This document shows, in pieces, positions 1 to 39,918 of a stretch of 64,000 nucleotides of DNA. The notes under the pieces are model-generated. The model searched no databases. It worked only from the letters and a program-made list of their open reading frames with translations, and had not been told where the DNA came from. The DNA comes from Blastocatellia bacterium (GTDB lineage: Bacteria; Acidobacteriota; Blastocatellia; Pyrinomonadales; Pyrinomonadaceae). The stretch covers positions 310,001 to 374,000 of the forward strand of contig JAEUQK010000029.1 in the NCBI GenBank assembly GCA_016789265.1, written 5' to 3'. Each line of letters opens with the position of its first letter. The stretch's first letter is position 1. The translations under genes were made by a program, and so were the position numbers.

Positions 1-1363
1 CTTCGGCCAATTCGCGGGTGGTCTGGTGAAATTCGGTGTATTGGTCGAATTCAAGTTCGTCAAAACCGGCTGGGAGATCGCTGGGCCGATTGGGGCGGCC
101 GAACGGTGCGTTCAGGACCGTGCTTCGATCTGTACTCAGCATGGACGCTTCGAAATCAACTTCAAGTTTTGAACTAGTTGATTGCAGCCGACGGGTTGTG
201 TTGTGAAGGTCTTCGATCTGGCGTTCGAGGTCGCGAATCCGCTGCTCGAATGCCGAACGCGAAATGATCATATCGCGAACAATGTTCACAAGTTCGTCAA
301 GACGGTCGAGAGAAACACGAACAACGGAACGTGAAGGGTTCGTTTTCGATTGTGTCCCTTCGTCCTGCAGCATTGCAAAGACCTTTTCCGCGAGTTTGTT
401 CTTTGAAATGAATGCTTCAGGTATCGGGATCGGGGTCGAGGTGACCGGTGTTTCTTCAGGGACAATCTCGACTGCCGCTTCGATCGTCTCTTCATTTATG
501 TCAGACAACGCCGCTGCATCCGGTTCGTTCAAATGAGCAAGGACGCCATCGAAGTCGTAATACAGCTGCGAGATCTGGTGGAACAGTTCCTGCGAGTTTT
601 CGCCTTTCGTTAGAGCTTTAAGGCAATTGGTCGAGACGTGCAGCAGTTCGATGATCCTCTGGTTAGAACCGCTGTTCGATTCAGCCAAACGGTCGAGGAG
701 ATCTTCCACACGATGAGCTAATTCCGATAGCTGCTTCAGTCCCACGATCCCCGCCGAACCCTTAAAGGTATGAGCATTCCTTCTTATCTCCCAAAGAGAG
801 TCTTTGTCGTTCGGTTCGTTTGCCAGCGTCTCAAGGCTTCGTTCCATATTGGTAAGAAGTCCTTCCGCCTCTTCTGCGAAGATCTCCAGAAGTTCGTCAT
901 CTACTTCGAAACCTTCCAGCTCGGCCGTTTCTGAAGACTCGCCCGCCGGCTGCGTAGAAGTTGAAATATCAACAAAGGCAGGATCGGGGAGATTCAGCTC
1001 AAATTCGTCTGAGAAATCGACAAAGTCCTCAATATCGAGCGAAAAATATTCTTCGTCCAGGCTCGCCTTTAGAAGCGTAGTCTCTAGCTTGCCGATGAGT
1101 TCAAGCGACGTCTTAAATCGTTCGGGGTCGGTATTTCTCTGTGCCGCGGCTTGAATTTCCGTGTCTATCAGCGAGGTCAATTCGGCGATCTCCGACAACT
1201 CCAGGATCTGTGCTGAGCCCAAAATAGACTGAAGGTGTTCCGAGATCACGGCAAGGGCATCCGGTGAAAGCGATGCCTTAGTGTCGCTTGTTAGCCGAGA
1301 GCGTATTTCCGGCAGACGCTTCATCGCCTGGTCTATAAAAGCTGGGTAAAGAGAGGGGGCCAT
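1..1363 (-). CDS. ChpA/CheA-like chemotaxis histidine kinase (3' part outside window)
   Basis: This is the N-terminal ~454 residues of a CheA-family kinase that should phosphorylate the receiver proteins of this chemosensory operon. The ATG at 1363 follows the receptor stop by 6 bp, so the two are cotranscribed. Residues ~1-100 look like a helical Hpt-type bundle without an obvious phospho-His. A second Hpt domain follows with the motif AHTFKGSAGIVG, whose phospho-accepting His is at about residue 198 (codon at 770-772). From ~350 (VVRVSLDRLDELVNIV) it resembles the dimerisation helices of ChpA, the type IV pilus kinase. The ATPase, CheW-like and any C-terminal receiver domains lie beyond base 1. 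Multiple Hpt-like domains fit ChpA better than classical CheA; the ChpA assignment is by resemblance. Confidence 0.9.
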   Translation of the reverse strand, partial: MAPSLYPAFIDQAMKRLPEIRSRLTSDTKASLSPDALAVISEHLQSILGSAQILELSEIAELTSLIDTEIQAAAQRNTDPERFKTSLELIGKLETTLLKASLDEEYFSLDIEDFVDFSDEFELNLPDPAFVDISTSTQPAGESSETAELEGFEVDDELLEIFAEEAEGLLTNMERSLETLANEPNDKDSLWEIRRNAHTFKGSAGIVGLKQLSELAHRVEDLLDRLAESNSGSNQRIIELLHVSTNCLKALTKGENSQELFHQISQLYYDFDGVLAHLNEPDAAALSDINEETIEAAVEIVPEETPVTSTPIPIPEAFISKNKLAEKVFAMLQDEGTQSKTNPSRSVVRVSLDRLDELVNIVRDMIISRSAFEQRIRDLERQIEDLHNTTRRLQSTSSKLEVDFEASMLSTDRSTVLNAPFGRPNRPSDLPAGFDELEFDQYTEFHQTTRELAE

Positions 1364-32881: not shown

Positions 32882-34165
32882 ATGCACTCGCTTACCTACG
32901 CACAACTGATCCGAGGAAACCGGAATTTCCGAAATTTGCTCAGTGGGCAGTTCATTTCGGAACTCGGGAACTGGTTTAACTTCATTGCCGGTGCGGGCCT
33001 TGTGCGTTTGGTTTCCGAGGCATCGCCGACTGCTGCGGGCTTGTTCTTTTTGTGCCGCGTCTTGCCATTTGCCGTTATGTCGCCGATCGCGGGTACGTTT
33101 GTTGATCGTTTTTCTCGGCGGCAGGTAATGATCTGGACAGATCTTGCTCGTGTTGCTGTGGCATTGATGTTCCTTTTCGTAAATGACGCCGGTGATCTTT
33201 GGATCGCCTATGTTGGAACGACTCTCCTTTCAACCTTTGGCGCGTTTTTCGACGGTGCAAAGAACGCGACTACGCCGAACCTTACCGGCAAAGAAGGCTT
33301 ACTCGCAGGAACGGCATTGATGTTCTCGACGCGTTTTCTTTTGATGGCTATAGGCTCGGCCCTGGGCGGATGGGCGGCGGCTATCTTTGGCTACAAGGTC
33401 GCTTTTGTTATCAATGCAATATCGTTCCTGGCGTCTGCTTACACGGTCTGGCTCATCCCTGAAGAAGCGACTCGTGATCAGGATACGGCAGACCGCATGG
33501 CAGATAGATCTGCGCGGCCATCTTTTATGACCGAGCTGCGCGAAGGGCTACATTATACCGTTACGAACCATTTTGCATTGACGATCCTGCTAATGAATGT
33601 GATCTGGGCGGTTGGCGGCGGTGCCATAAATATCATTTTCGAACGTGTGGGCGGTGTGCATTTTGCAGGGATCGAGGGTTGGAATCCGGATATCGCGGTG
33701 GCGATCCTTTGGACAGCGGGAGGCCTCGGGCTCGGCGGCGGCATGCTCATAGCTCATCGTACGTCCATATTCCTAGACCGAAAGGGCCGGCACACGTGGT
33801 TCATAGGTTGGGCTTTGATCATCCACGGCTTGCTATTTTCCGTAGCCGGATTGATGCCTACGCTTTTACTTTTTGCGGTGTTTGCCTTTGTGTCTCGGCT
33901 GATCATCGGTGTTGAATATGCGGTTCAGGAAACGTTGTTCCAGCGTTCTTTGCCGGATTACATTCGGGGCCGGATCTCGACTCTTGATCGCGGTGCAGAG
34001 CTGACAGTGTTCGGATCGTTCAGTTATATCTCGGGTGAGCTGATGTATTTCATCTCGCCGATGACGCTGACGATCATTTCGGGGGTCTTGTCGGGTAGTG
34101 CCGGGGTACTTTGGTTTATCCGTCAAGGGACGACGAACGAGAGAATTTCCGAATCCGAAAGTTGA
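32882..34165 (+). CDS. MFS transporter (EntS/MFS_3-like)
   Basis: 427 aa with about twelve membrane segments. The MFS motif A-like loop GTFVDRFSRRQVMIWTD lies between TM2 and TM3. The N-terminus (NRNFRNLLSGQFISELGNWF) is typical of the MFS_3 group containing the enterobactin exporter EntS and macrolide pumps. Beside the siderophore receptor and PepSY gene, export of a siderophore or related compound is plausible, but no siderophore synthesis gene is in the window. The kinase gene downstream begins within ~33 bp of its stop. Confidence 0.9.
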   Translation: MHSLTYAQLIRGNRNFRNLLSGQFISELGNWFNFIAGAGLVRLVSEASPTAAGLFFLCRVLPFAVMSPIAGTFVDRFSRRQVMIWTDLARVAVALMFLFVNDAGDLWIAYVGTTLLSTFGAFFDGAKNATTPNLTGKEGLLAGTALMFSTRFLLMAIGSALGGWAAAIFGYKVAFVINAISFLASAYTVWLIPEEATRDQDTADRMADRSARPSFMTELREGLHYTVTNHFALTILLMNVIWAVGGGAINIIFERVGGVHFAGIEGWNPDIAVAILWTAGGLGLGGGMLIAHRTSIFLDRKGRHTWFIGWALIIHGLLFSVAGLMPTLLLFAVFAFVSRLIIGVEYAVQETLFQRSLPDYIRGRISTLDRGAELTVFGSFSYISGELMYFISPMTLTIISGVLSGSAGVLWFIRQGTTNERISESES

Positions 34166-34197
34166 TTGGCGAGCGAAAATGGCAGAAACTTCGCGGT

Positions 34198-35370
34198 ATG
34201 GCGTTCGGCCGGTTTGGAAAACTTGGACGTGGAGTTCGGATCGCGGTCTCATTCGGCGTAGTTCTGCTAGTCACCGCAGCACTTCTTCCCTACAGAGAGT
34301 TTCTCAATTCCGCAGAAGTGGCTTTGATCTTGCTGCTTGTTGTCCTGTTTGCATCTACCCTGTTTGGAAGCACGGCGGGGCTGCTTGCCTCAGTTGTCGG
34401 TATCCTCTGCTTCAATTTCTTCTTCTTGCCTCCGTTCCACACCCTAAATATTTCAGGCGCTGAGAACTGGCTGGCATTCGGGACGTTTGTGATCACGGCC
34501 CTGATCGCGGGTCAGCTTTCCGGCTACGCTCGGAGACGGGCGGAGGAGTCTGAAGCGAGGCAGCGAGAGATAGAAACACTTTACGAAGAACTCAAGGGTG
34601 CATTTGAACAGGCTAGCGAGGCCGAGGCCTTGCGAAGAAGCGAAAAGCTGAAATCTGCTTTGCTTGATGCTGTAACGCACGACCTGAGAACGCCGCTTAC
34701 ATCGATCAAAGCATCGGTCACGACATTGATCGAAGATGTTGACTCTCATATGCTCGATCCAGATTCAAAGCGTGAATTTCTCCAGATCATTGACGAAGAG
34801 ACTGACAGGTTGGATGAATTCATCGAGGGAATGGTCGGCATCGCAAAGGTCGAAGCGAGTGCGCTACATCTCAAAAAGCGTCCCTCAGCTTTGGATGAGA
34901 TAGTCGGAAATGCGGTTGACAGGGCGGCGAGATCGCTTGGCAGCCGCGGCATTGAGATCAGTTTACCCGCTGACCTGCCCAATATCGTTGCGGACGGCTC
35001 GTCACTCTCAGAAGTATTGTTCACGTTGATCGACAACGCTGCGAAATACTCAGCGGACGGTACGACCATTAGCATCTCGGCGAAGCAAACGGCTGAGAAC
35101 GAGATAGAGATCGCGGTTCAAGACCAGGGCAGAGGCATCCGGCCCGAGTTGCGGGAGAAGGTCTTCGACAAGTTCTTTAGGCAGAGCGAGCAGGATATTC
35201 ACAAGACCGGCGGCGGCCTGGGCCTTGGACTTGCGATCGCACGCGGAATAGTCGAATCACAAGGCGGCAAGATCGCCATTGTCGATCCGGACAGTGGTTT
35301 TGCGACCAAGTTCCTGATCAAGCTTCCGATAGGAGGCGAGGCCGATTCGATGGAGACCGTATCATTGTGA
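34198..35370 (+). CDS. DUF4118 sensor histidine kinase (KdpD C-terminal half)
   Basis: About 390 aa. Four closely spaced membrane helices (~10-100) form a DUF4118 domain as in KdpD, including NFFFLPPFHTLNISG. Then a coiled coil, the H-box LLDAVTHDLRTPLTSIKAS with the phospho-His, N-box LIDNAAKYS and G-boxes DQGRGI and GGGLGLGLAIARG. It lacks the KdpD N-terminal sensor and Usp domains, which are encoded by a separate frame at 36766-37797. ATG 34198 is preferred; in-frame TTGs at 34162 (overlapping the MFS stop) and 34111 would lengthen it. The 3' end overlaps the response regulator start by 4 bp. Confidence 0.92.
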   Translation: MAFGRFGKLGRGVRIAVSFGVVLLVTAALLPYREFLNSAEVALILLLVVLFASTLFGSTAGLLASVVGILCFNFFFLPPFHTLNISGAENWLAFGTFVITALIAGQLSGYARRRAEESEARQREIETLYEELKGAFEQASEAEALRRSEKLKSALLDAVTHDLRTPLTSIKASVTTLIEDVDSHMLDPDSKREFLQIIDEETDRLDEFIEGMVGIAKVEASALHLKKRPSALDEIVGNAVDRAARSLGSRGIEISLPADLPNIVADGSSLSEVLFTLIDNAAKYSADGTTISISAKQTAENEIEIAVQDQGRGIRPELREKVFDKFFRQSEQDIHKTGGGLGLGLAIARGIVESQGGKIAIVDPDSGFATKFLIKLPIGGEADSMETVSL

Positions 35371-36071
35371 AGAGTTCAGCTATGACACCGAAGCGTATAC
35401 TGGTAATTGACGACGAATATCAGATAACTCGCGTACTGAAACGCAGCCTCGGCGCGCACCGTTACGACGTCCGTACCGCGGCTGACGGAGAATCGGGCCT
35501 CGACCTGTTTCGCGACTTTCATCCTGATCTTGTTATTACGGACCTTTCGATGCCGGAAATGAATGGGATCGAAGTTTGCAGAGCAATAAGGAAGTCGTCT
35601 GAAATTCCGATCATAGTGCTTTCAGTTCGTGGAGAGGAACGTGTCAAGGTCGAGGCTCTCGATGCAGGAGCTGACGACTACATCACAAAGCCGTTCGGGA
35701 TGAATGAGCTGCTTGCGCGGGTCAGGGCGTCGCTTCGGAGAAGCCCGGAAGAATCTACCGCATCCGAAGTCCTGGAGGTCGGAGATTTTGTCCTAGACAA
35801 TACGCGTCGGATGGTCATTGTCGGAGGAACGGAAGTACACCTCACGCCGAAGGAATTCGAACTGCTCGCCTACTTACTTGAACATCATGACCGCGTGATC
35901 ACTCACAGAACTTTGCTCTCCAAGGTTTGGGGCGGCGAATACACGGAACAGACCGAGTACCTTCGAGTCTTCATAGGAAATCTAAGAAAAAAGATCGAGC
36001 CCACCCCCTCGAAACCCCGCTACATTTTGACCGAACCCTGGGTCGGTTATCGCTTTGTCCCCGAGGCGTAG
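35367..36071 (+). CDS. KdpE-like OmpR-family response regulator
   Basis: 234 aa. The N-terminal receiver has DDE near residue 16, phospho-acceptor Asp in LVITDLSMPEMNG and Lys in YITKPFG. The C-terminal winged helix (LTPKEFELLAYLLEHHDRVITHRTLLSKVWG, read in two parts) is of OmpR/KdpE type. GTG 35367 overlaps the kinase stop (GTGA); ATG 35382 is a possible alternative. It is the cognate regulator of the overlapping kinase. Candidate targets are the small membrane protein and the permease downstream, each of which has CTTTAT-type repeats upstream. Confidence 0.93.
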   Translation: MKSSAMTPKRILVIDDEYQITRVLKRSLGAHRYDVRTAADGESGLDLFRDFHPDLVITDLSMPEMNGIEVCRAIRKSSEIPIIVLSVRGEERVKVEALDAGADDYITKPFGMNELLARVRASLRRSPEESTASEVLEVGDFVLDNTRRMVIVGGTEVHLTPKEFELLAYLLEHHDRVITHRTLLSKVWGGEYTEQTEYLRVFIGNLRKKIEPTPSKPRYILTEPWVGYRFVPEA

Positions 36072-36106
36072 TCTTTACGAATTTTTTACATCACTTTTAT
36101 CCGGGC

Positions 36107-36169
36107 TTTATTATCCGCTTCGTATCCTGATGGTGGAGAGGCCGTCCACGAGCCGGCTCGGATAATAAA
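36107..36169 (+). promoter_or_regulatory. Candidate structured leader closed by an 11-bp inverted repeat
   Basis: TTTATTATCCG (36107-36117) and CGGATAATAAA (36159-36169) are exact reverse complements, and the second arm abuts ATG 36170. Inside them GTGGA and TCCAC form a smaller stem and GAGCCGGCTC is a palindrome. The ribosome site candidate GGAGAG is in the enclosed part. Upstream, CTTTTATCCG (36094-36103) repeats the first arm, so a protein-binding site is an alternative. Confidence 0.45.
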
Positions 36170-36524: not shown

Positions 36525-36725
36525 ATGAAAAAGTTCTGGTACCTGATCATATTCGCGTTCGTGTTTGCGCTGCTTTTGGGCATTGACTCAAAGGCGCAGC
36601 AGACGATATTTAATGTTCCGTCAACAGATGTACTTGATCAGGGAAGAGTTTATGCGGAGCTCGACGTGAGCTTTAAGGTAAATAATCAAGACGCCCTTCG
36701 CAGGTTTTCAAGTTTCGTACCGCGT
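36525..36725 (+). pseudogene. Truncated outer-membrane protein gene (5' fragment)
   Basis: ATG 36525 opens a frame with a good signal peptide (MKKFWYLIIFAFVFALLLGI...SKAQQ) and a mature start TIFNVPSTDVLDQGRVYAEL. I recall this as the N-terminus of a conserved acidobacterial outer-membrane protein family that continues SSFVPR-VVVG-type. Here the family resemblance stops at RRFSSFVPR (codon ~36723), after which the DNA is KdpD coding sequence in another frame; the fragment frame runs on to a stop at 36792-36794. It is therefore a 5' remnant, joined to kdpD by deletion or recombination. Confidence 0.55.
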
Positions 36726-36765
36726 TTATATCGGTGCGGCGGCAGGCGTCGGAAAGACCTATCGC

Positions 36766-37797
36766 ATGCTGCAGGATGCTCATCAGCTTCGTGATCAAGG
36801 CATCGACGTAGTGATAAGTGTCGTGGAAGCCCATGGCCGGTTTGAAACGGAAGAGCAGATCAAGGACCTCGAATGTGTTCTCCCGCGGAAATTGGAATAC
36901 AGAGGAACGGTTTTCACTGAAATGGATGTCGGTGCCGTGATAGAACGCAGGCCGGCGGTGGCCATTGTCGATGAACTTGCCCATACAAATATCGAAGGTT
37001 CAAAGAATACGAAGCGATATGAGGACGTATTGGAATTATTGGACGCCGGCATATCGGTAATTACGGCCATCAACATTCAGCATATCGAATCACTCAATGA
37101 CGTGATCGCCTCAACGACCGGGGTTCGTGTACGGGAAACGGTACCGGACTCGTTTTTCAAACGCGCGGACGAGATAATCGATGTAGATGTCTCGATCGAT
37201 ACACTCCGTACGCGACTGAGGCAGGGTAAGGTCTATTCGATCGAAAAGATCGAACAAGCCCTTAATAATTTCTTCCGGAAGGGAAATCTCGCTGTGCTGC
37301 GCGAACTCGCCCTTCGTCAAGTGGCCCAGCACCAGGCCGAGCAAGATCATGAGTACCGGGAGCGCGAGGGGCTCGAGCAATTTGTCGTGCCGGAGAAAGT
37401 CATGGTGTGCATGGCGAGCCGCGGAAGTGCGACCAAACTGCTTAGGACCGGCGCTCGGATCGTCGGCCGGCTGGCCGTCAAGGATTGGTTCGCTGTTTAC
37501 GTCGAAACGCCGGAGGAAGAACCGGGCCGAATTGACCCGAAAGCATATGCAGTTCTCCAACAGAACATCTCACTTGCCGACTCATTGGGTGCTCAAGTCG
37601 TGAAACTTAAGGGAAAAAATGTCGCTGACGAGTTGTTGAAATTCGCACGCAGCAATGAAATAACTCACGTCATTTTCGGACAGTCCGCAAGATCGCGATG
37701 GGAGATCCTATTTAAGGGTTCCGTCATCAATCGCTTTCTCAAAGAAGTAAAGCGAGCCTCGGTTCATGTGATCCCGCTCGATGAGTCCGAGAAATAG
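36766..37797 (+). CDS. KdpD N-terminal sensor half with Usp domain; native start missing
   Basis: The open frame covers the KdpD N-terminal domain and a universal-stress-protein domain. Walker A (GAAAGVGKT) is encoded at ~36730-36756, but the first usable start codon is ATG 36766, after it. The frame is open back to 36682 with no ATG, GTG or TTG, and upstream DNA belongs to a truncated outer-membrane gene in a different frame. Downstream motifs are intact: VDELAHTN, ITAINIQHIESLNDV and the Usp part from VMVCMASRGSATKLLR. Normal KdpD carries this region fused to the DUF4118 kinase. It ends before the permease. Either a start-less remnant or a frame rescued by frameshifting. Confidence 0.8.
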   Translation: MLQDAHQLRDQGIDVVISVVEAHGRFETEEQIKDLECVLPRKLEYRGTVFTEMDVGAVIERRPAVAIVDELAHTNIEGSKNTKRYEDVLELLDAGISVITAINIQHIESLNDVIASTTGVRVRETVPDSFFKRADEIIDVDVSIDTLRTRLRQGKVYSIEKIEQALNNFFRKGNLAVLRELALRQVAQHQAEQDHEYREREGLEQFVVPEKVMVCMASRGSATKLLRTGARIVGRLAVKDWFAVYVETPEEEPGRIDPKAYAVLQQNISLADSLGAQVVKLKGKNVADELLKFARSNEITHVIFGQSARSRWEILFKGSVINRFLKEVKRASVHVIPLDESEK

Positions 37798-37832: not shown

Positions 37833-37854
37833 TCTTTATAAAATCTTTATAAAT
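37833..37854 (+). promoter_or_regulatory. 11-bp tandem repeat upstream of the permease
   Basis: TCTTTATAAAA and TCTTTATAAAT are directly adjacent, giving one repeat per helical turn, as for two OmpR/KdpE-type winged helices. A partial third unit (TCTGAT) follows. It lies ~105 bp before ATG 37960. A KdpE-like binding site is inferred, not shown. Confidence 0.45.
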
Positions 37855-37959
37855 CTGATCATAGACTAGAACGGGTGGTAAGTTCTGCCAATATTGAAGG
37901 CGCGGTCATTTGGCCGTGCCTTTGGTTCGTGGCTTGAAAATTTCCACTTTACCAAGTGT

Positions 37960-39918
37960 ATGCCAGCAGCAGCGACGGTTAGCGTTTCGAAAAGGGGAAT
38001 AGCAAGACGCGGTTTCAGGGATTGGTTCATGCAGGGCGTTAAGCCCGCGGACGCGGCTGGTGCTAAAGCCGAGAAACACCACAGTCATAAATGGTGGCAG
38101 GTAATGTGCCTTACGGGCGTGGATTATTTCTCGACGTTGGGTTACCAGCCGGGCATTGCTTTCATTGCGGCTGGGGTGTTGTCGCCTATTGCGACTATCA
38201 TCCTGGTTCTCCTGACATTGTTTGGAGCCCTTCCGATCTACAGACGGGTGGCGGCAGAAAGTCCGCATGGGCAGGGTTCGATCTCGATGCTTGAGCGCCT
38301 GCTTTCCCGATGGAAGGGAAAGTTGTTTGTGCTAACTCTGCTGGGCTTCGTCGCGACGGACTTTGTTATAACTATCACTCTCTCTGCTGCGGATGCGACC
38401 GAGCACATTATTCACAACCCGTACATCGAGGGACATTTCCCTCAGCTTGATCACCCGATCGCCGTCACGTTTTTGTTGGTCGGCGTTCTTGCGGCCGTAT
38501 TTCTCAAGGGATTCAAAGAGGCGATCGGACTTGCGGTAGTCCTTGTCATAGTTTATCTCTCAATGAACTTTCTCGTGGTGCTGACGGGCTTCTATCACAT
38601 CTATCTAGATCCATCTGTGGTCTCCAACTGGTCGTCAGCTTTGTTTACATCGACCACGATCGCCGGAGCAACCGAGCCGCGGAGCCTTCTGATGATCATC
38701 GGTTTGTCGTTGCTGGTATTTCCGAAACTTGCACTCGGACTTTCCGGCTTCGAAACAGGGGTTGCAGTAATGCCGCTGGTCGAGAACCCGAACCGCATCG
38801 AGAAAACACGCAAATTGCTCATGACCGCAGCTATGATCATGAGCTTTTACCTGATCTCGAGCAGTTTCGTGACGACGCTGCTAATTCCAGCGGCTGAGTT
38901 TCAGGAGGGCGGAAAGGCTTCAGGACGTGCCTTGGCGTTCCTTGCACACAACTATTTGGGCGAGCTTTTCGGGACCGTTTATGACATATCAACGATCTCC
39001 ATTTTGTGGTTCGCCGGCGCCTCGGCTATGGCAGGATTGCTTAATATCGTTCCACGCTACCTTCCTAGGTATGGAATGGCACCGACATGGGCAAGGGCAA
39101 CGCGACCGCTTGTCGTGGTTTTTGCCGTTATATGTTTTACGATCACGTGGATATTCAATGCAGATGTTGAGGCGCAAGGCGGGGCTTACGCAACCGGAGT
39201 CTTAGTGCTGATGACATCGGCTGGCATTGCCGTCACTATTTCCGCGTGGTATCGAAACGAGGCGTTGAAATGGGTTTTTGCACTTATTTCGCTTGTGTTC
39301 GCATATACAACGGTCACCAACATTGTCGAACGGCCGGACGGAATAAAGATCGCGGCTTTCTTCATTTTTGGGATCGTCGTAGCATCATTCGTCTCGCGTG
39401 CGATGCGTACAACGGAGGTGAGAATAGAGAAGATCGAGCTGGATGATGTGGCAAAGCAGTTCCTGAACGAGGTAGCCGCCGAAGGCGATATCCGGATCGT
39501 AACGAACCGCCGCGAATCCGGAGATGCCAGCGAGTATCGTTTCAAGGAACACGAAAAACGTGTCGATAACCACATACCTTCAGGCGATCCGATATTGTTT
39601 TATGAGATCGAGATCGGCGACGCATCGGAATTTACAGGAAAGCTCAGAATAACCGGGGCGGACGTCGGCGGCTATCGTATTCTTAGGACAAAATCGCCCG
39701 CGGTACCCAACGCTATCGCCGCTCTGCTTCTTCACGTACGCGATGCGACGAACAAGATACCGCACGTTTACTTTGGATGGAGCGAGGGAAATCCGGTGAA
39801 GTATCTGATCAGATATATATTATTCGGCGAGGGCGATACCGCACCGGTAACCAGAGAGATCCTCAGGCAAGCCGAGCCGGACCCGGAATTGCGGCCAAGC
39901 GTCCATGTTGGGGGTTAA
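37960..39918 (+). CDS. APC-superfamily permease, possible potassium transporter
   Basis: About 652 aa. Twelve or so membrane segments occupy residues ~60-500, starting [21 protein letters not shown], and a ~150-residue cytoplasmic C-terminal domain follows. The fold and length resemble the APC-type KimA/KUP transporters more than classical amino acid permeases, though databases often label this group amino acid transporter. Location beside KdpD/KdpE-type genes supports K+ uptake as substrate, which is an inference. No strong ribosome site marks the start: TTG 37894 is in frame upstream and ATG 38028 downstream. A tandem repeat at 37833 may be its operator. Confidence 0.8.

What the first reader, a model, noticed from the sequence alone, without database searches (positions are those of the whole stretch)
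36525..37797. Start-less kdpD sensor gene joined out of frame to a truncated outer-membrane-protein gene
The KdpD/Usp frame is open from 36682 and encodes a complete Walker A (GAAAGVGKT), yet has no ATG, GTG or TTG before ATG 36766, which lies after the P-loop. Immediately upstream, another frame (ATG 36525) carries a signal peptide and an outer-membrane-protein N-terminus that ends at SSFVPR. The two meet at 36717-36726, where GTACCGCG can be read as either partner, consistent with recombination at microhomology or with a misassembly. If real, the N-half of the sensor would depend on frameshifting, leaky initiation, or be dead.
Basis: partly seen in the sequence, partly recalled or inferred. 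Interest (0 to 1): 0.6.

Follow-up and report, generated by a model that had tools for sequence, protein, structure and literature searches.

The report
Deletion scar of a potassium pump
About 5.4 thousand bases carrying all three genes of the Kdp potassium pump were recently lost from this bacterium, welding the front end of an outer-membrane protein gene out of frame onto the pump's regulator kinase gene and cutting off that gene's start; the scar itself is ordinary, but it shows a potassium-sensing circuit outliving its pump.

Summary
In relatives the order is HK–kdpE–(small membrane protein)–OMP–kdpA–kdpB–kdpC–kdpDN, where kdpDN encodes the stand-alone KdpD/Usp half of a split KdpD. From OMP 'SSFVPR' to kdpDN 'RVYIGA' they carry about 5.3–5.8 kb; the window carries none, joined at CGCG(T) (36721–36725). 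KdpA, KdpC and the OMP C-terminal part are absent from the whole assembly, and only distant P-type ATPases match KdpB. So this is a deletion scar: the kdpABC pump is gone, OMP keeps 67 codons, and kdpDN has lost its start plus about 30–40 codons. Of 41 same-genus genomes 12 have kdpDN; only this one is beheaded. The deletion is recent: kdpDN shows no departures at 122 invariant residues and no stop. KdpDN's known job elsewhere is inhibitory phosphorylation of KdpB, which is gone here, so it is most likely a fresh pseudogene. The KdpD C-half and KdpE remain, with KdpE-type operators (YTTTAY-N5-YTTTAY) after kdpE and before a neighbouring unnamed permease; in relatives the same operator precedes KimA, Kup or that permease. 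A misassembly is unlikely but untested by reads.

The parts
34111..35370 (+). Histidine-kinase half of split KdpD (DUF4118, HisKA, HATPase_c); intact
   Evidence: Pfam; orthologs in same locus of relatives
35367..36071 (+). kdpE response regulator (OmpR/PhoB family); intact
   Evidence: Pfam; best NCBIfam model is KdpE (below its cut-off); 81% identical in G009
36073..36111 (+). Predicted KdpE operator: four YTTTAY half-sites at 11-bp spacing; in relatives it precedes the OMP-kdpABC operon
   Evidence: matches the E. coli TTTATA-N5-TTTACA site (PMC3264566)
36170..36499 (+). Small membrane protein (109 aa) between kdpE and OMP; weakly conserved in relatives
36525..36725 (+). Remnant of an outer-membrane-protein gene: signal peptide plus first 67 codons; its ORF runs on out of frame to TGA at 36794
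36721..36725 (+). Deletion junction: CGCG(T) fits both the OMP ('PR') and the kdpDN ('RV') sides; about 5.3-5.8 kb missing
36721..37797 (+). Beheaded kdpDN (KdpD serine-kinase-type domain with complete Walker A, plus Usp domain); start codon and about 30-40 N-terminal codons lost
36766..37797 (+). Longest kdpDN ORF with a standard start (343 aa); lacks the P-loop
37834..37850 (+). Predicted KdpE operator CTTTATAAAATCTTTAT, 60 bp before the permease ORF
37894..39918 (+). Uncharacterised APC-like permease (674 aa), preceded by a KdpE-type operator in 6 of 8 genomes that have it at this locus; no Pfam, NCBIfam or PDB sequence match

Best explanation
A recent deletion of about 5.3-5.8 kb, at 4-5 bases of microhomology, removed the last two thirds of the outer-membrane-protein gene, all of kdpA, kdpB and kdpC, and the start plus roughly 30-40 codons of kdpDN. 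What remains is an out-of-frame weld of an OMP stub (67 codons) to a beheaded kdpDN. KdpDN is the stand-alone KdpD/Usp protein whose E. coli and Deinococcus counterparts phosphorylate KdpB to shut the pump down. With KdpB gone it has no known substrate, and without a start codon before the P-loop it cannot be made normally, so it is most likely a fresh pseudogene. Any product would be a Walker-A-less 343-aa protein from ATG 36766, possibly by reinitiation after the stub's stop at 36794. The histidine-kinase half and KdpE remain intact and probably now serve the downstream permease through its own KdpE-type operator. Shown: gene order, absence of the pump, junction, conservation, operator-like repeats. 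Inferred: loss of kdpDN function, substrate identity in this organism, control of the permease.
For: Order OMP-kdpA-kdpB-kdpC-kdpDN in same-genus G004, G023, G026, G027, G031, G033, G034 and G061; Pfam confirms KdpA, KdpC and KdpD there, and E1-E2 ATPase plus hydrolase for the KdpB product. KdpA, KdpC and the OMP C-terminal part are absent from this 98%-complete genome; KdpB finds only P-type ATPases of 30-39% identity over parts. Both edges match relatives up to CGCG(T). kdpDN is in 12 of 41 genus genomes; every other one whose upstream sequence was read continues into an N-terminal extension. Recency: 0 of 122 invariant sites changed, no stops; simulated neutral drift above about 1% per site would rarely leave this if the gene were dead; OMP stub and P-loop both intact would be rare above about 5%, while fourfold sites against G009 differ at 57-66%. 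KdpD N-terminal domains phosphorylate KdpB (PMC11018627).
Against: No read mapping, so an assembly error is not formally excluded. The intact kdpDN frame does not by itself separate 'just died' from 'still used'. The window genome sits in a clade (G009, G007, G010, G013, G020) in which every other sampled genome has lost kdpABC and kdpDN altogether, so recent loss here implies several independent losses. One genome per species is held, so the deletion may be a strain variant.
Confidence: 0.85

Rival explanations
1. Same deletion, but the shortened KdpDN is still made and useful: translation from ATG 36766 (or by reinitiation after the OMP stub stops at 36794) gives a Walker-A-less KdpD/Usp protein that still binds a ligand through Usp and modulates the remaining kinase half or the permease.
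For: The frame is fully intact with no departures at 122 invariant sites. It now lies downstream of a KdpE-type operator. ATG 36766 lies just before the stub's stop codon at 36792-36794, close enough for coupling. The intact kinase half could be its partner.
Against: The intact P-loop lies upstream of ATG 36766 and would have drifted under long use of that start; with the OMP stub it bounds the age at about 5% neutral drift. Conservation is equally explained by a very recent deletion. The ribosome-binding strength computed before ATG 36766 is weak. Sister species keep the kinase half and KdpE without any kdpDN.
Confidence: 0.1
2. Misassembly or chimera: the real chromosome carries OMP-kdpABC-kdpDN and the assembler joined across it.
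For: The join is at a few bases of microhomology, both gene pieces look freshly cut, and no reads were available.
Against: Four to five shared bases should not drive a de Bruijn or overlap collapse (general knowledge); the contig is 435 kb; kdpA, kdpC and the OMP C-terminal part are nowhere else in the 98%-complete, 42-contig assembly; the sampled sister species also lack kdpABC.
Confidence: 0.05
3. Programmed frameshifting makes an OMP-KdpD fusion or restores the P-loop product.
For: The two frames overlap from 36682 to 36794.
Against: No relative has the leader fused to kdpDN; the product would carry a signal peptide on a cytoplasmic ATP-binding domain; the arrangement is explained by the deletion.
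Confidence: 0.01

Closest known systems
Split KdpD: stand-alone KdpD/Usp serine kinase plus separate TM/DHpCA histidine kinase (PMC11018627; Deinococcus radiodurans kdpD-N, PMC5716572)
   Same: Same domain split; kdpDN is next to kdpABC in relatives; complete G-x5-GKT Walker A codons
   Different: In the window kdpDN has no start codon before the P-loop and its substrate genes kdpABC are gone
KdpE operator TTTATA-N5-TTTACA of E. coli (PMC3264566)
   Same: Two 6-bp direct repeats at 11-bp period, intergenic, in front of K+ uptake genes
   Different: Here one copy precedes the relic operon and another an unnamed permease; binding not tested
KimA potassium importer (PDB 6s3k)
   Same: A KimA homolog sits at the same locus behind the same repeat in G008, G013, G016 and G034
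   Different: The window's permease is only weakly similar to KimA (hhalign probability 60%)
Ordinary microhomology-mediated deletion scars (general knowledge)
   Same: Short shared bases, two truncated gene ends, everything between missing
   Different: Nothing unusual apart from the genes concerned

Membership tests
KdpD/Usp stand-alone atypical serine kinase (KdpDN) | KdpD domain (PF02702) with Walker A G-x5-GKT and a Walker B DE | tested here: met
   Pfam E=9e-89; GAAAGVGKT and VAIVDELAHT in the frame; matches PDB 2r8r
KdpD/Usp stand-alone atypical serine kinase (KdpDN) | Start codon allowing translation of the P-loop | tested here: not met
   No ATG, GTG or TTG between 36682 and ATG 36766
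KdpD/Usp stand-alone atypical serine kinase (KdpDN) | KdpB substrate encoded in the genome | tested here: not met
   kdpA and kdpC absent, KdpB only distant P-type ATPases
Deletion scar of the OMP-kdpABC-kdpDN operon | Both flanks collinear with intact operons of relatives, with the interior missing | tested here: met
Deletion scar of the OMP-kdpABC-kdpDN operon | Interior genes absent elsewhere in the genome | tested here: met
Deletion scar of the OMP-kdpABC-kdpDN operon | Reads span the junction | not testable with these tools
   No reads held
Pseudogene (old, decayed) | Loss of constraint (stops, frameshifts, changes at invariant sites) | tested here: not met
   0 of 122 invariant sites changed, no stops; consistent with a very recent loss, not with old decay
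KdpE operator | Two TTTAYN-like half-sites separated by 5 bp, in front of K+ uptake genes, more often than chance | tested here: met
   41 hits in 358 kb against 0.3 expected, none inside a mapped gene; 5 in the window against 0.04 expected, 4 of them at this locus
KdpE operator | Binding by KdpE | not testable with these tools
   Needs a binding assay
KimA-type K+ importer (window permease 37894-39918) | Sequence match to KimA or a K+ importer family | tested here: inconclusive
   No PDB, Pfam or NCBIfam match; weak profile match to KimA homologs

The most novel reading that the evidence does not exclude
The locus is caught midway through a transporter swap: the KdpD/KdpE circuit has lost the Kdp pump and now drives, through its own KdpE-type operator, an unnamed APC-like permease that would be a new family of K+ importers, with KimA or Kup filling the same slot in related species. 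The beheaded KdpDN is a passenger from the previous state.
Probability: 0.4. Interest if true: 0.5.

Novelty: new member of a known kind. Interest (0 to 1): 0.3.

Why it matters
The junction is a clean natural experiment: the presumed KdpB-phosphorylating protein (KdpDN) loses its start in the same event that removes its substrate KdpB, while the kinase-regulator pair survives. That fits the 2024 model in which KdpD's N-terminal half exists to inhibit KdpB. The conserved operator in front of KimA, Kup and an unnamed permease gives a direct list of candidate K+ importers in this bacterial group and shows how a sensing circuit can outlive and change its target.

Tried and rejected
The idea that the deletion was inherited from the common ancestor of the kdp-lacking sister clade was rejected because the OMP stub, P-loop and kdpDN are too intact. 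No relic of OMP or kdpDN was found between kdpE and the permease in G009, so no shared scar. The permease found no PDB or family match, and a structure prediction was not run because it could not be given the homologs held here and a single-sequence fold of a membrane protein would mislead. TrkH was sought as a back-up K+ importer and is absent. The extra YTTTAY box at 1335-1351 (minus strand) lies just beyond the 3' end of a chemotaxis-type receptor ORF and was set aside. A literature search for Kdp in this bacterial family gave nothing useful.

Full report
What is there. The frame 36682-37797 is open, directly follows a TAA, and has no ATG, GTG or TTG before ATG 36766, yet encodes YRVYIGAAAGVGKTYR, a complete KdpD-type Walker A, in that stretch. 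The frame from ATG 36525 has a signal peptide and an OMP-like start ending in SSFVPR, then runs out of frame to TGA 36794. Pfam gives KdpD (E=9e-89) and Usp (3e-5) for the downstream frame. The window is G000 contig 19, 310001-374000, in a 3.88-Mb, 98%-complete assembly.

What the relatives show. In same-genus genomes the two halves of the join are separate, complete genes about 5.4 kb apart. The order is HK (kinase half of KdpD), kdpE, small membrane protein, OMP, kdpA, kdpB, kdpC, kdpDN in G026 and, with small variations (an extra permease or extra ORFs, or no detectable small protein), in G004, G023, G027, G031, G033, G034 and G061. In G028 no OMP is detected but kdpABC-kdpDN is present. 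Pfam confirms KdpA, KdpC and KdpD, and gives E1-E2 ATPase and hydrolase for the KdpB product. The distance from OMP 'FVPR' to kdpDN 'VYIGA' is 5.28 kb in G026, 5.31 in G004, 5.38 in G027, 5.48 in G023 and 5.78 in G033 (positions). In the window it is zero. The OMP side matches relatives up to CCGCG and the kdpDN side from CGCGT, so the shared bases are 36721-36724 or 36725. In the relatives kdpDN begins some 30-40 codons before the P-loop.

The interior is gone from the genome. KdpA and KdpC are absent, with control genomes ringing as expected. The OMP C-terminal part finds nothing (the full OMP query did find relatives at 45-76% identity, so such a query works at that distance). KdpB finds only P-type ATPases of 30-39% identity over parts of the protein, against 77-86% for true KdpB in the genus. 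The OMP stub and kdpDN occur once each. So this is a deletion, not a translocation, and a misassembly would have had to lose 5.4 kb completely.

When. kdpDN of the window has 0 departures at 122 residues invariant in 15 other sequences, no stop, and codon-position ratios like those of intact genes. Simulation: if the gene had been unconstrained, a drift of 1% per site would leave such a sequence about 5% of the time, 1.5% about 1% (substitutions only, no indels). Two pieces that should not be under selection if only ATG 36766 is used, the OMP stub and the P-loop stretch, are also intact (0 of 14 and 0 of 9 invariant sites changed); together they limit drift to about 5%. By contrast fourfold sites against the nearest relative G009 differ at 57-66%. 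The deletion is therefore much younger than the species split, although the sister species G007, G009, G010, G013 and G020 have lost kdpABC as well. Several independent losses of Kdp in this genus are implied: only 12 of 41 genus genomes keep kdpDN.

How it works or fails. In E. coli the N-terminal KdpD domain is an atypical serine kinase that phosphorylates KdpB and stops the pump; its Walker A motif is required, a short KdpD/Usp version from Deinococcus geothermalis does the same under control of c-di-AMP, and split versions (KdpD/Usp alone plus a separate histidine kinase) are described (PMC11018627; see also PMC5716572). The window's kdpDN is of that stand-alone type. Here the same event removed the substrate and the start of the kinase. 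The most economical reading is a fresh pseudogene. A Walker-A-less protein from ATG 36766 is possible, since the stub's stop lies just past it, but sister species manage with the kinase half and KdpE alone.

What the circuit still does. A direct repeat YTTTAY-N5-YTTTAY, the form of the E. coli KdpE site TTTATA-N5-TTTACA (PMC3264566), occurs 41 times in 358 kb of these loci against 0.3 expected, with no hit inside a mapped gene. It lies just after kdpE, ahead of the OMP-kdpABC operon, and again ahead of a KimA homolog, a Kup (identified by eye from its sequence in G010 and G020), or the permease that also follows kdpDN in the window. In the window itself the sites are 36073-36111 and 37834-37850, plus one elsewhere. 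The permease (37894-39918) carries such a site in 6 of the 8 genomes that have it at this locus (window, G004, G009, G031, G033, G061; not G006 or G011). KimA identity of the alternative gene is firm (6s3k, E=1e-155); that of the window's permease is not. TrkH is absent from the genome. I infer, without a test, that KdpD/KdpE now controls the permease.

Verdict. A real, recent deletion scar with a clear cause; ordinary in kind. The unexpected part is the surviving circuit and the operator in front of an unnamed permease.

Noticed in passing
36073-36111 and 37834-37850: KdpE-type operators (11-bp-spaced YTTTAY repeats) after kdpE and before the permease; the same repeat precedes KimA, Kup or the permease in related genomes.
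   Followed up: partly
37894-39918: 674-aa permease conserved at 66-83% identity in six other aligned genomes (one more, G006, has a hit at 76%), with no Pfam, NCBIfam or PDB sequence match; candidate new K+ importer family.
   Followed up: partly
L049:9599-10124: kdpC of G023 matches in two overlapping pieces in different frames, suggesting a frameshift.
   Followed up: no
L050:6267-6466: In G001 the contig ends inside the OMP gene at nearly the same point, right after SSFVPRVV, so its kdp state cannot be read there.
   Followed up: no
1335-1351: One further KdpE-like box on the minus strand, just beyond the 3' end of a chemotaxis-type receptor ORF (1370-2878, minus); probably chance or unrelated.
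   Followed up: no
L166:1809-3806: The permease homolog of G006 has a stop codon inside the matched stretch, perhaps a pseudogene or sequencing error.
   Followed up: no
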